Shown: in pieces, positions 43,479-50,128 of the stretch
Layout: every line of letters starts with the position of its first letter
Numbering within the stretch: the first letter of the stretch is position 1
Assembly (NCBI RefSeq): GCF_944801835.1
Contig: NZ_CALYLN010000001.1
Coordinates: 186,001 to 250,000, forward strand
DNA: 64,000 nt
Direction of reading: 5' to 3'
DNA from: Bartonella sp. B1099
GTDB lineage: Bacteria; Pseudomonadota; Alphaproteobacteria; Rhizobiales; Rhizobiaceae
The notes under the pieces: generated by a model
Told to the model about the DNA's origin: nothing
The model's input: only the letters and a program-made list of their open reading frames with translations
The model's database searches: none
Made by a program: the position numbers and the translations under genes

Positions 43479-44465
43479 TGATCAAGCTGTCTTTTACTTT
43501 AAAACTACTTACCGAAAGATAATATTTCTGTCATCTGCTTTCTCAAACCATATCCCAACTTTACATCACTTATTAAAGATCATAAGAAATGATAAAATAA
43601 ATAAGCTATCGTTAAGTCGTGCAAAATTCTAAAACGCTTTATAACAAAAGCTTATCATTCCACAATACTCATTTCTTCATAAAAACTTCAATTCCAACAA
43701 CAACTGCGTTGATACAGTTTTTTAGCGAAAATACTCAAGTTCTTAATTTGGAAAATAAACAGATTAAAAAACGCCTAAAAATTACTTCCTTAGGGATAAA
43801 ATCCTTGATTTATAATTATCGTTTATTCTTCAAGCCTCATGAGAAGCCCAAATATCTTTTCTCATTTCAAATCTGTTTATATTAAATCAATCACAACACT
43901 TTGTTTGCCCATTCATTGAGTAGAATGAGCAATAAAAACACTTAAAGATAAAGAATAAAATATTTCTTCCTCTCAAACGCAAAAATTGTGGGAGTATTTT
44001 GAACTGACAGAGGATTAGAACTATGCGCCATTGTACACCTTTTTTCAGGAAAGATAGAAACATGGCGTTTATCCTATCCATAGAAGCTTTCCCTTGCTAC
44101 ACTTCACGCAGCACCATTCATGAAATGAGGACGAGCCTTGAGAAAGATTTTTTTTAAACAAGCAGATGAAGTGACAAAATCCAAGCTATTCTGTTTTTGT
44201 GTGTTGCATGAGGGATGTTCACTCATGAAAGCTTTTCCCTCTCATTATGATATCTCAACCACATAAGAAAAGCCATTTTGGTTATTGATCAAAGACCTCG
44301 TGAGGCACCCACAGAGAGCTGAATTTTAAACTCCACAGAGAGATTGTTGCTCCCTTCACAAATGCAGAGCTGAGGACATCATTTTGCTGAGCACGTCTTA
44401 AAAATTTGAAAGGCAAACAGTCTCTCCTTCAATAAATCTACCCGTTTTCAGAAAAACGATTTTTA
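43479..44465. other. gene-poor spacer with a dispersed repeat
   Basis: No supported gene; an 88-codon frame (43619-43885) has no support. The part 44080-44465 is a diverged copy of 29990-30380, the DNA upstream of the integrase remnant, sharing several 12-20 base blocks in order. Confidence 0.55.
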
Positions 44466-44736
44466 TTGCCAAGCTCTTAAAATTATTTTACCCACTGAAA
44501 GATATTTTGGTCACATACGCAAAGATCAAGAGGAACGACAAATTCAAAACCTCAAACCATAAATTTATCCCGCTTTGCGTTTTTTTTCGAATTCCGGGAG
44601 ATTTTGCACTGTCCAGGTGCTTCCCAGCACTAAAAGCAAAATGCTGACTAGGATTCAGTGTTTTCAAGCTCCCGGAATACTAAATGCGAGGGCGCTCGCA
44701 CTAGGCGGGGACAAATGCAAACTCAAAATCTTAATA
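44466..44736. repeat. tandem duplication unit 1 (271 bp): integrase scrap, Brt-like RNA, truncated trp start
   Basis: The block starting TTGCCAAGCTCTTAAAATTA at 44466 recurs at 44737, and every matching landmark has the same 271-base offset. The unit contains an integrase scrap (GHIRKDQEERQI), the Brt-like leader, and the first nine codons of the XRE gene, which then run into unit 2. The two units differ most in the integrase scrap and least in the leader. Confidence 0.85.
44590..44715 (+). ncRNA. Brt-like regulatory RNA, copy 1
   Basis: A strong stem pairs ATTCCGGGAG (44591-44600) with CTCCCGGAAT (44669-44678). It encloses a conserved 68-base interior, followed by a small hairpin GCGAG/CTCGC (44686-44699). 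In Bartonella henselae a family of small RNAs (Brt) precedes genes for XRE-type regulators (Trp) and controls them; this leader has the same placement. The gene behind this copy is cut off after nine codons. Exact RNA ends cannot be read from sequence. Confidence 0.6.
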
Positions 44737-44860
44737 TTGCCAAGCTCTTAAAATTACTTTATGAATCAAAAGGTGTTTTGGTCGTCTACGCAACGATCAA
44801 GTGGGCCTTGAAAACCTAAAACCCTAGCGTAAAAATGAACCCACTCTGTGGGTGTCCCGG

Positions 44861-44985
44861 AATTCCGGGAGATTTTGCTATGTCCAGGTGCTTCCCAGCA
44901 CTAAAAGCAAAATGCTGACTAGGGTTCAGTGTTTTCAAGCTCCCGGAATACTAAATGCGAGGGCGCTCGCAACCGGAGGGGGCAA
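44861..44985 (+). ncRNA. Brt-like regulatory RNA, copy 2, leader of the XRE gene
   Basis: Same structure as copy 1: perfect 10-bp stem ATTCCGGGAG (44862-44871)/CTCCCGGAAT (44940-44949), then hairpin GCGAG/CTCGC (44957-44970), then Shine-Dalgarno GGAGG (44975-44979) and ATG 44986. The interior is almost unchanged between copies (two or three substitutions), implying selection on the RNA. The closeness of the last hairpin to the Shine-Dalgarno suggests control of translation or early termination. Confidence 0.65.
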
Positions 44986-45345
44986 ATGCAAGCTCAGAAC
45001 CTTAATATTGATCTTTTTGTTGGCAAAAAAATTCGCTTGAAGCGAAAAATGTTGGGAATATCTCAAAAAACCTTAGGAGACGCTTTAGGGGTAAGTTTTC
45101 AACAAATTCAAAAGTATGAAAAAGGCTTAAATCGCGTGAGCGCAGGACGTTTAAAGGAAATTTCCGATATCCTAAAAGTTCCGGTTTCCTTTTTTTATGC
45201 GGATATTATCACAAAAGAAAACACCTCGTACCCTCATGAAGAAATTGCATCAAGCAAAGAGGAATTTTTGCTTTTAAAAAGTTTTAGAGTCCTGACCTCT
45301 GTCAAACAAAAAGCCATTTTAAAATTAATTTCTGATCAAAATTAA
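44986..45345 (+). CDS. XRE-family transcriptional regulator (Trp-like)
   Basis: ATG 44986 is chosen because GGAGG lies 6 bases upstream; longer frames start inside the RNA leader. The 119-residue product has a helix-turn-helix at residues ~14-70 (IRLKRKMLGISQKTLGDALGV, SFQQIQKYEKG, LKEISDILKVPVSFFY). A short C-terminal tail ends in KQKAILKLISDQN. It resembles the small XRE regulators found beside Brt RNAs in Bartonella, reported to affect badA adhesin expression. Targets here could include the autotransporter cluster, but nothing in the sequence proves this. Confidence 0.85.
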   Translation: MQAQNLNIDLFVGKKIRLKRKMLGISQKTLGDALGVSFQQIQKYEKGLNRVSAGRLKEISDILKVPVSFFYADIITKENTSYPHEEIASSKEEFLLLKSFRVLTSVKQKAILKLISDQN

Positions 45346-46723: not shown

Positions 46724-47117
46724 TTCTTAACACGCTCGCTCAAAAAGTTCATATTTTTCTATCATTTTACATTATTTATCAGCAATCCCCTTGTTTTTAA
46801 AGAAAAAAATATAAATATCTGTTTTGTATATTAACTACATTTTGTAAAAAATAATATTCTCTCTCACCTTATTTTAATATTGTTGTCTTAACCAGAAACA
46901 CAACTTAAAATTGCCATTTTTATATAACACAATCTCAGTTTGAAAAGACTTCTGTCTCTTTAAGAAGAGCGTTTGAGAGTGAGAAAATCCACGATCAAGA
47001 CTTTAAAAACAAAAAAAACAAGGAGTTTAAACTGTCAAAAATAACAGAATTCTCCAGTTGTTAGAGGCAATGAAATGTCAACAGATGAACAAATATTGTT
47101 TGTTAAAGAGAGGTAAA
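46724..47117. other. virB promoter region
   Basis: About 390 bases, AT-rich, divergent between the SNase-like gene and virB2. It must contain the virB operon promoter, known in B. henselae to respond to BatR/BatS and RpoH1. I could not place confident promoter boxes; TTGCCATTTTTATATAAC at about 46910-46927 is one candidate region. Confidence 0.5.
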
Positions 47118-47441
47118 ATGACAGATAATAGATTTCAGAACATCATTTTTATCGTGACCATGCTGCTTTTTACAGCAGTATTTTTGTCCGATCTTTCTTA
47201 TGCTGCTCCTTCTTCTCCTAGTGGGGGTGATTTCGGGAATCTTGATGGTGTTTTAGGCAACATTGTTACAATGATGACGGGCGCAACGGCAAAGCTCATT
47301 GCCATTATATGTGTTGCTGCTGTAGGTATTGGCTGGATGTACGGCTTTATTGATTTACGCAAAGCAGCTTACTGTGTTCTGGGTATTGCGATTGTTTTTG
47401 GGGCTCCCACTCTCGTCGGTAAATTAGCGGGCACAACATAA
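47118..47441 (+). CDS. virB2: T4SS pilin VirB2
   Basis: Start ATG 47118 (MTDNRFQ) follows AGAGAGG; the longer frame has no better site. The 107-residue product has a long signal peptide ending near SYA-APSS. Two hydrophobic segments follow (LIAIICVAAVGIGWMYGFI and YCVLGIAIVFGAPTLVG), the layout of VirB2 propilins. It forms the extracellular pilus of the VirB/VirD4 system. It is first of an operon with virB3 starting 1 base after its stop. Confidence 0.92.
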   Translation: MTDNRFQNIIFIVTMLLFTAVFLSDLSYAAPSSPSGGDFGNLDGVLGNIVTMMTGATAKLIAIICVAAVGIGWMYGFIDLRKAAYCVLGIAIVFGAPTLVGKLAGTT

Positions 47442-47442
47442 A

Positions 47443-47751
47443 ATGAACGAAGATACCCTTTTCTTGGCCTGTACACGTCCGGCCATGTTTGCCGGTGTTA
47501 CAATGGAAGCGATGGCACTCAATGTCATGGCAACATCTATTCTCTTTATTTTGACCAGTGGTTTTACCATGTTTGGTTTAGGCATCGGGATGCACTTTAT
47601 TTTACGTGAAGTGACAAAATATGATCACAACCAATTTCGCGTATTATTTGCGTGGCTCAATACAAGAGGAAAACAAAAAAATCTCAGCCGATGGGGAGGC
47701 GGTTCTACCTCCCCCTTACGCCTTGTCCGCACTTATAAGGAACTACGCTGA
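47443..47751 (+). CDS. virB3: T4SS protein VirB3
   Basis: The 102-residue product begins MNEDTLFLACTRPAMFAG, typical of VirB3 (FxxATRPAM-like). It has a hydrophobic stretch (LNVMATSILFILTSGFTMFGLGIGM) and a C-terminal tail. VirB3 is an inner-membrane partner of the VirB4 ATPase. Spacing to virB2 is 1 base; virB4 begins 22 bases after its stop. Confidence 0.92.
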   Translation: MNEDTLFLACTRPAMFAGVTMEAMALNVMATSILFILTSGFTMFGLGIGMHFILREVTKYDHNQFRVLFAWLNTRGKQKNLSRWGGGSTSPLRLVRTYKELR

Positions 47752-47773
47752 AGGAACAAAACCGGTGAAACAG

Positions 47774-50128
47774 ATGTCAATGATGAAACGGGAAACTTTG
47801 CCTGAAGAATATATTCCCTACATACGCTACATCAACCAGCATGTCATTGCTTTAAACTCACGCTGTTTAATGGTTGTGATGGCTGTTGAAGGTGTCAATT
47901 TTGACACGGCAGACATTGATCAACTCAATTCTTTACACAACCAATTAAACACTCTTTTGAAAAATATCGCAGATGAACGGGTTGCTTTATATTCTCACAT
48001 CATCCGTCGTCGTGAAACAATTTATCCAGAAGGTCATTTTCTTTCATCTTTTGCAACAACATTAGATGAAAAATATAAAAAGAAAATGGTTTCGCAAGAG
48101 CTGTATCGCAATGATCTGTTTATTTCACTGCTTTGGAATCCCGCAGCGGACAAGACACAACAACTAGCTTCATTTTTTCAGCGCTTGAGCAAAGCAAAAA
48201 AAACACAATCTGAACCCGACGCAGAAGCTATTCGGAAACTCGAAGAGTTAAGCCAAGATCTCATGCAAGGTTTAGAAGAATATGAAGTCCGTCTCCTATC
48301 AATCTATGAACATGAAGGACTTTTATTTTCTGAACAAAGTGAATTTCTCCACCAACTGGTGGGAGGAAGACGTGAACGTATTCCTCTTACATTTGGCACC
48401 ATTGCCTCAACGATTTACTCAGATCGTGTTATTTTTGGGAAAGAAATTATTGAAATTCGCCATGAAAGCAATGAACGCTTTGTCGGCATGTTTGGCTGGA
48501 AAGAATACCCTTCAAAAACCCGCCCAGGGATGACCGATGGTTTGCTTACGGTCCCCTTTGAATTCATCTTAACACAATCGTTTGTTTTTAAAAGTAAAGC
48601 GGTTGCCAGTGCCATTATGAGCCGCAAGCAAAATCAAATGATTAATGCAGCCGACCGTGCTAGCTCACAAATTGATGCACTGGATGAAGCCTTGGATGAT
48701 TTAGAGTCAAACCGTTTTGTTTTGGGCGAACATCATATTTCTTTAGCCGTTTTTGCGGATCACCCCAAAATATTGACGGAGAACTTATCAAAAGCACGTT
48801 CTCATTTAACCAATGGGGGTGCCGTAATTGCCAGAGAAGATTTAGGATTAGAAGCCGCATGGTGGGCACAATTGCCTGGAAACTTTAGCTATCGTGCGCG
48901 TTCAGGCGCCATTACCAGCCGAAACTTTGCAGCTTTATCGCCCTTCCATTCTTTCCCCGTTGGCAAATTGAACGATAATGTTTGGGGAGCAGCTGTCGCA
49001 TTGCTCAAAACACAGGCTGGTTCACCTTACTATTTTAATTTTCATTATGGTGATCTTGGCAACACGTTTGTTTGTGGTCCATCGGGATCTGGTAAAACAG
49101 TGATTGTTAATTTTCTTCTTGCACAATTACAAAAACACAATCCGACCATGGTTTTTTTTGATAAAGATCAAGGAGCGGAGATTTTTGTCCGCGCTGGAGG
49201 TGGAAAATATAAACCTCTCAAAAATGGACAGCCCACGGGGATTGCTCCCTTAAAGGGCATGGAATACAATGAAAAAAATAAAATTTTTCTTCGTCATTGG
49301 ATCTTAAAGCTCGTCACAGCTGAAGGGCAAATTGTAACAGAAGAAGAGCGACAAGATATCGCCAAAGCCATTGACTCTTTAGAAAACTTACCCCCAACAC
49401 ACCGCTCTCTTGGAGCCCTTCAACTGTTTTTTGACAACACATCCAAAGAAGGGATTGCCATGCGGCTACAACGCTGGATTAGAGGCAATGATTTAGGATG
49501 GGTTTTTGACAATGATCAAGATGATCTTAATTTAAATGCACAATTCATTGGCTATGACATGACCGATTTCTTAGACAATGAAGAAATTCGGCGCCCCTTG
49601 ATGATGTACCTCTTTCACCGCATTCTTGATCTGATTGATGGACGACGCATCATTATTGTCGTTGATGAGTTCTGGAAAGCTTTGGAAGATGATTCCTTTA
49701 AAGCTTTTGCGCAAGATCGGCTTAAAACAATCCGTAAACAAAATGGCATGATGCTCTTTGCAACCCAAAGTCCTAAAGACGCTTTAAACTCCACAATCGC
49801 CCATACCATTATTGAACAATGCCCCACCCAAATATTTTTTCCCAATCAAAAAGCAAATTACAATGATTATGTTGAAGCTTTTAAACTCACTGAGCGTGAA
49901 TTTGAACTGATACAGTCAGAATTAAGTAGAGAATCCCGTCGTTTTCTCGTCAAACAAGGGCAAAGTTCCGTCGTTGCAGAACTTAACTTACGGGGAATGA
50001 ACGATGAGATTGCCGTTTTAAGCGGCACAACAAAAAATATTGAACTTATGAATGAAATTATAAACGAACATGGCGCAGACCCTGAAAAATGGCTGCCCAT
50101 CTTTTATCAGAGGAGAAAAAAACAATGA
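47774..50128 (+). CDS. virB4: T4SS ATPase VirB4
   Basis: ATG 47774 gives 784 residues, the length I recall for B. henselae VirB4. GTG 47765 lies 9 bases after GAAGGA and is an alternative start. The frame extending back to 47621 overlaps virB3 and is not used. The C-terminal ATPase domain has Walker A GPSGSGKT near residue 435 and Walker B IIIVVDEFWKAL. VirB4 powers pilus biogenesis and substrate transfer from the inner membrane. Confidence 0.95.
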   Translation: MSMMKRETLPEEYIPYIRYINQHVIALNSRCLMVVMAVEGVNFDTADIDQLNSLHNQLNTLLKNIADERVALYSHIIRRRETIYPEGHFLSSFATTLDEKYKKKMVSQELYRNDLFISLLWNPAADKTQQLASFFQRLSKAKKTQSEPDAEAIRKLEELSQDLMQGLEEYEVRLLSIYEHEGLLFSEQSEFLHQLVGGRRERIPLTFGTIASTIYSDRVIFGKEIIEIRHESNERFVGMFGWKEYPSKTRPGMTDGLLTVPFEFILTQSFVFKSKAVASAIMSRKQNQMINAADRASSQIDALDEALDDLESNRFVLGEHHISLAVFADHPKILTENLSKARSHLTNGGAVIAREDLGLEAAWWAQLPGNFSYRARSGAITSRNFAALSPFHSFPVGKLNDNVWGAAVALLKTQAGSPYYFNFHYGDLGNTFVCGPSGSGKTVIVNFLLAQLQKHNPTMVFFDKDQGAEIFVRAGGGKYKPLKNGQPTGIAPLKGMEYNEKNKIFLRHWILKLVTAEGQIVTEEERQDIAKAIDSLENLPPTHRSLGALQLFFDNTSKEGIAMRLQRWIRGNDLGWVFDNDQDDLNLNAQFIGYDMTDFLDNEEIRRPLMMYLFHRILDLIDGRRIIIVVDEFWKALEDDSFKAFAQDRLKTIRKQNGMMLFATQSPKDALNSTIAHTIIEQCPTQIFFPNQKANYNDYVEAFKLTEREFELIQSELSRESRRFLVKQGQSSVVAELNLRGMNDEIAVLSGTTKNIELMNEIINEHGADPEKWLPIFYQRRKKQ

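What the first reader, a model, noticed from the sequence alone, without database searches (positions are those of the whole stretch)
44466..45345. Tandemly duplicated Brt-like RNA leader with a truncated and an intact XRE gene
A 271-bp unit is repeated exactly in tandem, giving two structured leaders. The first is followed by only nine codons of the regulator, so it would be a stand-alone RNA, possibly a decoy or trans-acting copy of the leader that controls the second. The 10-bp stem and hairpin are preserved in both.
Basis: partly seen in the sequence, partly recalled or inferred. Interest (0 to 1): 0.7.

Follow-up and report, generated by a model that had tools for sequence, protein, structure and literature searches.

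The report
Duplicated Bartonella RNA switch, one dead
A gene-control RNA of Bartonella has been copied in tandem, and the upstream copy has lost both the gene it would control and most of the parts that seem to let it switch; comparing such broken copies with working ones points to which parts of the RNA form the switch.

Summary
The tandem repeat is real but not exact: two abutting 271-bp units, 218/271 identical. Both match a covariance model trained only on B. henselae-type Brt leaders (121 and 150 bits), so this is the published Brt-Trp family. Copy 2 leads an intact XRE gene (trp). Copy 1 is followed by 8 shared codons, then a 34-codon ORF that runs into copy 2.

New here: in trp-linked Brt leaders a hypervariable 5' arm pairs with the leader's own 3' arm (mean -18.0 against -11.1 kcal/mol permuted) with strong compensatory change. 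Copy 2 has this helix; copy 1 lacks it and the CCCGG hairpin. Trp-less leaders recur: 50 of 235 leader hits, in 23 of 27 genomes sampled. They relax the switch parts but keep the core.

Best reading: copy 1 is a switch-dead duplicate whose core is refreshed by gene conversion, perhaps still transcribed. A decoy acting on copy 2 is not supported. A stand-alone RNA or ligand sponge remains possible. Transcription was not testable.

The parts
44464..44734 (+). Copy 1: tandem Brt unit, from promoter to trp codon 8 (TATTG at both edges)
   Evidence: Repeat family D1, alignment, covariance hit 44569-44716, 121.4 bits
44464..44491 (+). Copy 1 promoter-like region (start site inferred near 44497-44507 from the published Brt length)
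   Evidence: Profile score 26.0, shuffled mean -17.1; first 22 bases identical to copy 2
44580..44587 (+). T tract replacing the CCCGG strand and part of the P2 hairpin in copy 1
   Evidence: predicted CCCGG hairpin probability 0
44591..44678 (+). Copy 1 core closed by the 10-bp stem (44591-44600 with 44669-44678); AC at 44608-44609 where 128 of 142 trp-linked leaders have TA
   Evidence: stem probability 1.0
44685..44700 (+). Copy 1 3' hairpin
44715..44819 (+). 34-codon ORF after copy 1: 8 trp codons, then 26 unrelated codons running into copy 2
   Evidence: Translation
44735..45005 (+). Copy 2: Brt unit that leads the intact trp gene
   Evidence: Covariance hit 44840-44988, 150.4 bits
44780..44798 (+). 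Copy 2 5' hairpin P1
44807..44827 (+). Copy 2 hypervariable 5' arm, complementary to 44919-44939
   Evidence: -23.0 kcal/mol, rank 0.00; covariation of the helix in 33 leaders
44856..44869 (+). Copy 2 palindromic hairpin CCCGGAATTCCGGG, which shares a strand with the 10-bp stem
44862..44949 (+). Copy 2 core and 10-bp stem (44862-44871 with 44940-44949)
44919..44939 (+). Copy 2 hypervariable 3' arm
44956..44971 (+). Copy 2 3' hairpin; no U tract follows
44975..44982 (+). Ribosome-binding site of trp (GGAGGGGG), read by eye
44986..45345 (+). trp: 119-aa XRE-type regulator
   Evidence: Pfam HTH_3 E 1.9e-13; translation

Best explanation
Copy 2 with trp is an ordinary working brt-trp unit. Its leader can take two folds: one with the hypervariable long-range helix and the CCCGGAATTCCGGG hairpin, the other with the 10-bp stem and the CTGA/TCAG hairpin; the change of fold gates trp (long-range fold inferred OFF, by hiding the ribosome site or by attenuation). 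Copy 1 arose by a 271-bp tandem duplication between TATTG in the promoter and TATTG in trp codons 7-8, before the split from B. elizabethae. With no gene to control it lost the switch parts. Its core stays close to copy 2, most likely through gene conversion among leader copies. It probably still gives an RNA of about 200 nt fixed in the stem fold, with little or no regulatory role. Shown from sequence: duplication, family membership, covariation of the helix, its loss in copy 1. Inferred: ON/OFF direction, transcription, gene conversion, lack of role.
For: Covariance hits 150.4 and 121.4 bits. Own-arm pairing in 119 distinct trp-linked leaders -18.04 against permuted -11.12, sd 0.25; top 5% rank in 120 of 140 trp-linked, 11 of 40 solo-tandem leaders. 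Double changes in 10 of 16 pairs, 75 cells against 25.1 shuffled, 1 to 9 when slid. Copy 2: long-range helix 17.6 bp, CCCGG hairpin probability 1.0; copy 1: 0 and 0, stem probability 1.0. Solos violate invariant positions in the CCCGG hairpin (.123 against .012), ribosome site (.118 against .006) and 3' hairpin (.060 against .007), little in the core (.008 against .003). Promoter-less solos keep clean cores too (15/616, 3/242), and several solos combine arms of different types, both as expected from gene conversion. Five lineages have one leader at this locus; B. elizabethae has a copy-1-like 5' half, 90.5%.
Against: Pairing of CUCCC with the ribosome site is weak: 3 bp or more in only 32 of 137 trp-linked leaders, and in copy 2 it varies from 6.0 to 0.0 bp with the length folded. 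With 60 nt of trp added, the predicted long-range helix of copy 2 falls from 18.6 to 6.8 bp. 40 of 137 trp-linked leaders are predicted mainly in the stem fold. Copy 1 violates none of 57 core and none of 23 3'-end invariant positions, which selection would also explain. The B. elizabethae counterpart has TA, not AC, at the core site. Hits are found largely by their core, so core retention is partly built in.
Confidence: 0.58

Rival explanations
1. Copy 1, like other trp-less Brt copies, is a functional stand-alone small RNA; selection keeps promoter and core because Brt RNAs act in trans, and the switch parts are not needed for that.
For: Promoter found in 30 of 50 solo-tandem leaders; core nearly free of violations; copy 1 has 0 of 57 core violations; trp-less copies in 23 of 27 genomes. 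PMC5387305 (sections read: Results parts 1-2, Discussion) proposes Brt1 as a trans RNA.
Against: 20 of 50 solo-tandem leaders have lost the promoter while such solos keep the core. Copy 1 has AC at a core site that is TA in 128 of 142 trp-linked leaders. No target or transcript is known here.
Confidence: 0.22
2. Copy 1 adds a second promoter and a tandem leader: read-through from copy 1 passes copy 2 and trp, so trp answers to two leaders in series.
For: Same strand, no U-tract terminator seen between them; 31 of 34 full-length solos are followed within 700 nt by a leader, against 52 of 139 trp-linked ones (P = 6e-9).
Against: Copy 1's switch parts are broken, and only 11 of 40 solo-tandem leaders keep a matched helix. 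The enrichment may only reflect how trp is lost within arrays.
Confidence: 0.12
3. Copy 1 RNA is a decoy that pairs with the 5' arm of copy 2 and so changes control of trp.
For: Copy-1 3' arm with copy-2 5' arm -16.6 kcal/mol, rank 0.02; copy 1 does not use that arm itself.
Against: Copy 2's own helix is stronger (-23.0). Genus-wide 5 of 39 solo-next pairs match so well, control 2 of 49. The combined RNA shows no cross-pairing. The match follows from recent common origin of the two 3' arms.
Confidence: 0.05

Closest known systems
Brt1-9 RNAs with Trp1-9 regulators of Bartonella henselae Houston-1 (PMC5387305)
   Same: Same core, 10-bp stem, 3' hairpin and short spacing to an XRE gene; both copies hit a model made from those leaders
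   Different: Copy 1 has no trp gene and has lost the long-range helix. None of the nine G023 (Houston-1-type) leaders lacks trp sequence downstream, though some trp frames carry stops
Metabolite-responsive attenuators and riboswitches (general class)
   Same: Leader with two mutually exclusive predicted folds before a gene; a brt1-gfp reporter is reported to brighten as heme falls (PMC8070961, passages seen)
   Different: No ligand binding shown; no U-tract terminator; ribosome-site pairing weak
SreA/SreB dual riboswitch-sRNAs of Listeria (named as comparison in PMC5387305)
   Same: A leader RNA proposed also to act in trans
   Different: No trans target identified here; no sequence comparison was made

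Membership tests
Brt RNA family | Sequence and structure like the B. henselae Brt RNAs | tested here: met
   Model from eight distinct G023 leaders: copy 2 150.4 bits, copy 1 121.4 bits, full length
Brt RNA family | Followed at 10-18 nt by an XRE-type trp gene (copy 2) | tested here: met
   14 nt between hairpin end 44971 and ATG 44986; HTH_3
Brt RNA family | Followed at 10-18 nt by an XRE-type trp gene (copy 1) | tested here: not met
   Start codon at 14 nt but only 8 trp codons; so copy 1 is a Brt derivative, not a brt-trp unit
Brt RNA family | Abundant transcript of 194-203 nt | not testable with these tools
   No RNA data; geometry allows it
Brt RNA family | Restricted to Bartonella | tested here: inconclusive
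   46 of 71 genomes of the genus match; no match in the phage collection; other genera were not searched with the leader
Riboswitch | Two alternative folds tied to expression | tested here: inconclusive
   Alternative folds predicted and the long-range helix covaries; stem almost invariant; expression not testable
Riboswitch | Binds a ligand | not testable with these tools
   Heme link only from passages of PMC8070961
Rfam families | Score above the gathering threshold of any family | tested here: not met
   0 matches in the whole window

The most novel reading that the evidence does not exclude
Brt leaders are a genus-wide set of RNA switches that share one sensing core but carry copy-specific switching helices. 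Again and again trp has been lost and the core left behind, often with a promoter, giving stand-alone core RNAs such as copy 1 that soak up the shared ligand or protein and so tune all working leaders of the cell at once.
Probability: 0.12. Interest if true: 0.75.

Novelty: new variant of a known kind. Interest (0 to 1): 0.5.

Why it matters
Whether Brt RNAs are cis switches, trans RNAs or both has been open since they were described in 2016. Copies without trp are a natural control: the long-range helix, the CCCGG hairpin and the ribosome site hold when a trp gene follows and drift when none does, while the core stays. That makes the cis-switch model directly testable in one helix and marks the core as the likely sensing part. 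It also warns that Brt copy counts include switch-dead copies.

Tried and rejected
Exact repeat: rejected, 80%. The bases after codon 8 of copy 1 as a trp C-terminal remnant: rejected, because the same bases precede other leaders as their promoter region. Copy 1 as the remainder of a deleted brt-trp-brt-trp array: possible, but five lineages have one leader at this locus and the joints fit a direct duplication. Decoy pairing: tested, not supported. Copy-specific helices selected to avoid cross-talk within a genome: weak only (9.3% cross-matches within genomes against 11.5% permuted, one-sided 0.045). Clean core as proof of function: rejected, since promoter-less solos have it too. The 'no stem' energies are invalid (the constraint blocked the bases altogether); one search replaces them. 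The promoter line is biased towards units that have a promoter (hits had to start at model column 3 or earlier); one search is the unbiased one. The profile used to find leaders was built from 18 leaders of this genome, copy 1 among them, so only model R1 is an independent membership test. Phage collection: no match. Rfam: none.

Full report
What is there. The window lies in a 2.29-Mb Bartonella genome. The best-matching named relative of its trp gene is in B. elizabethae (97% over residues 10-119). Two leader units abut at 44464-44734 and 44735-45005 and are 218/271 identical without gaps. The match is patchy: the first 22 bases are identical, 20-base blocks over 44484-44583 have 11 to 15 matches, and 44589-44700 is 97% identical to copy 2. 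Copy 2 is followed by a 119-aa XRE regulator, 44986-45345. Copy 1 has eight codons of the gene, then 26 unrelated codons that run through the promoter of copy 2 and end at 44819. TATTG stands at 44464, 44735 and 45006, so a direct duplication between the promoter and trp codons 7-8 explains the layout.

Family. A covariance model from eight distinct leaders of genome G023 hits copy 2 with 150.4 and copy 1 with 121.4 bits over all 149 positions. G023 has nine leader matches spread over 277 kb, two of them identical. PMC5387305 (abstract, Results parts 1-2 of 3 and the Discussion read; Methods not read) reports nine Brt RNAs within 277 kb of B. henselae Houston-1, with Brt4 and Brt9 identical. 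So both copies belong to the Brt family. Rfam gave no match in the window. In the genus, 46 of 71 genomes match.

Sample. I fetched 66 regions around listed hits and used them with the window, 27 genomes in all. A profile built from 18 leaders of this genome finds 235 leader hits: 143 with a near-full trp, 29 with a broken or partial one, 50 without trp and with another leader within 330 nt (solo-tandem), 9 without trp and not so followed, 4 at an edge. Some of the 143 carry an internal stop or a short N-terminus. These counts are of chosen regions, not of whole genomes. Solo-tandem leaders occur in 23 of 27 genomes; by eye their joints fall into about a dozen kinds, so trp was lost many times.

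A helix that belongs to the switch. The 5' part of the leader and the stretch around the CTGA/TCAG hairpin vary strongly between copies but stay complementary within a copy. In 119 distinct trp-linked leaders the own-arm duplex averages -18.04 kcal/mol; 2000 permutations average -11.12, sd 0.25, lowest -12.00. The own arm ranks in the top 5% in 120 of 140 trp-linked, 12 of 25 partial-trp, 11 of 40 solo-tandem and 2 of 5 other solo leaders. On 33 trp-linked leaders of one length class (alignment A4), 90.7% of cells pair, 10 of 16 pairs have changes on both sides, and 75 cells are doubly changed, against 25.1 in shuffles (0 of 500) and 1 to 9 when the partner is slid; the number of further pair types was not above the shuffles (498 of 500 reached it). 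It shares a strand with the conserved hairpin CCCGGAATTCCGGG, so the two exclude each other.

The two copies. Copy 2 is predicted with the long-range helix (17.6 expected bp), the CCCGG hairpin (1.0) and 6.0 bp between CUCCC and the ribosome site; copy 1 with the 10-bp stem (1.0) and none of these. These numbers depend on length: with 60 nt of trp the long-range helix of copy 2 falls to 6.8 bp and the ribosome-site pairing is 4.6 bp; in a read-through RNA that pairing is 0.0. Over the family, 40 of 137 trp-linked and 20 of 30 solo-tandem leaders are predicted mainly in the stem fold, and ribosome-site pairing of 3 bp or more is predicted in 32 of 137. So the alternative folds are well supported, the ribosome-site step is not. 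Copy 1 violates 9 of 43 invariant positions in the 5' part, 0 of 57 in the core and 0 of 23 at the 3' end. It has AC where 128 of 142 trp-linked leaders have TA; the eight trp-linked leaders with AC have a weak long-range helix (-10.3 against -18.9, P = 2.4e-5). The B. elizabethae counterpart has TA.

What solos keep. Against 139 trp-linked leaders, 34 full-length solos violate invariant positions more in the CCCGG hairpin (.123 against .012), ribosome site (.118 against .006), 3' hairpin (.060 against .007) and 5' hairpin (.036 against .005), little in the core (.008 against .003). A search that does not require an aligned promoter finds one in 30 of 50 solo-tandem leaders and in 99% of 142 trp-linked ones. 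The 22 solos without a promoter still have clean cores (15/616 and 3/242 violations) though 46/158 positions of their 5' hairpin are lost. The profile finds leaders largely by the core, so part of this contrast is built in, but 19 hits lack the 5' half and only 4 lack the core. Several solos combine a 5' arm and a 3' arm that look normal but belong to different types. I read this as gene conversion among leaders, tolerated where no trp depends on the match. Selection on the core as an RNA is not excluded.

Decoy test. The copy-1 3' arm can pair with the copy-2 5' arm (-16.6 kcal/mol, rank 0.02), because the copies nearly share that arm. Of 39 solo-next pairs 5 reach the top 5%; of 49 control pairs, 2. 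A predicted RNA across both copies keeps each leader's own folds. A decoy role is not supported as a general feature and is weak here.

History. In B. elizabethae the upstream flank is 96.3% identical and a leader with copy 1's T tract is present, 90.5% identical over 158 positions, before a run of N that ends inside trp. So copy 1's decay began before that split; whether copy 2 is there too cannot be read.

How it most likely works. PMC8070961 (a review; passages seen) says that deleting the 3' stem-loop of brt1 raises trp1 transcription and that gfp behind brt1 brightens as heme falls; the primary paper was not seen. My reading: copy 2 moves between the long-range fold and the stem fold and so gates trp; the direction is inferred. 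Copy 1 is a by-product that lost this ability.

Novelty. Three searches of the held library listed two papers centred on Brt RNAs. In the main text of PMC5387305 'covari' and 'pseudoknot' do not occur. Its supplementary tables were not seen; Table S3 there lists trp-brt linkage by species, so trp-less copies may have been counted. Most subscription papers are not in the library.

Noticed in passing
window 47058-50128: A virB2-, virB3-, virB4-like type IV secretion gene run starts about 1.7 kb downstream of trp on the same strand (VirB4 family match 3.1e-288; VirB2 and VirB3 matches below the curated cut-offs).
   Followed up: partly
L025:2690-3103 (minus strand): Two core-like Brt remnants about 150 bp apart, neither followed by trp; both keep the 10-bp stem and lack CCCGG.
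   Followed up: partly
L081:3792-6262; L092:14136-14936; L112:1240-2259: Arrays of repeated solo and trp-linked leaders, such as three solo-trp pairs in a row (G028) or two solos before one trp unit (G067, G052).
   Followed up: partly
L023:4492-4748 (minus) and other trp-linked leaders with AC in the core: Eight trp-linked leaders carry AC instead of TA in the core loop and have a weak long-range helix, so they may be switch-dead too.
   Followed up: partly
   Followed up: no
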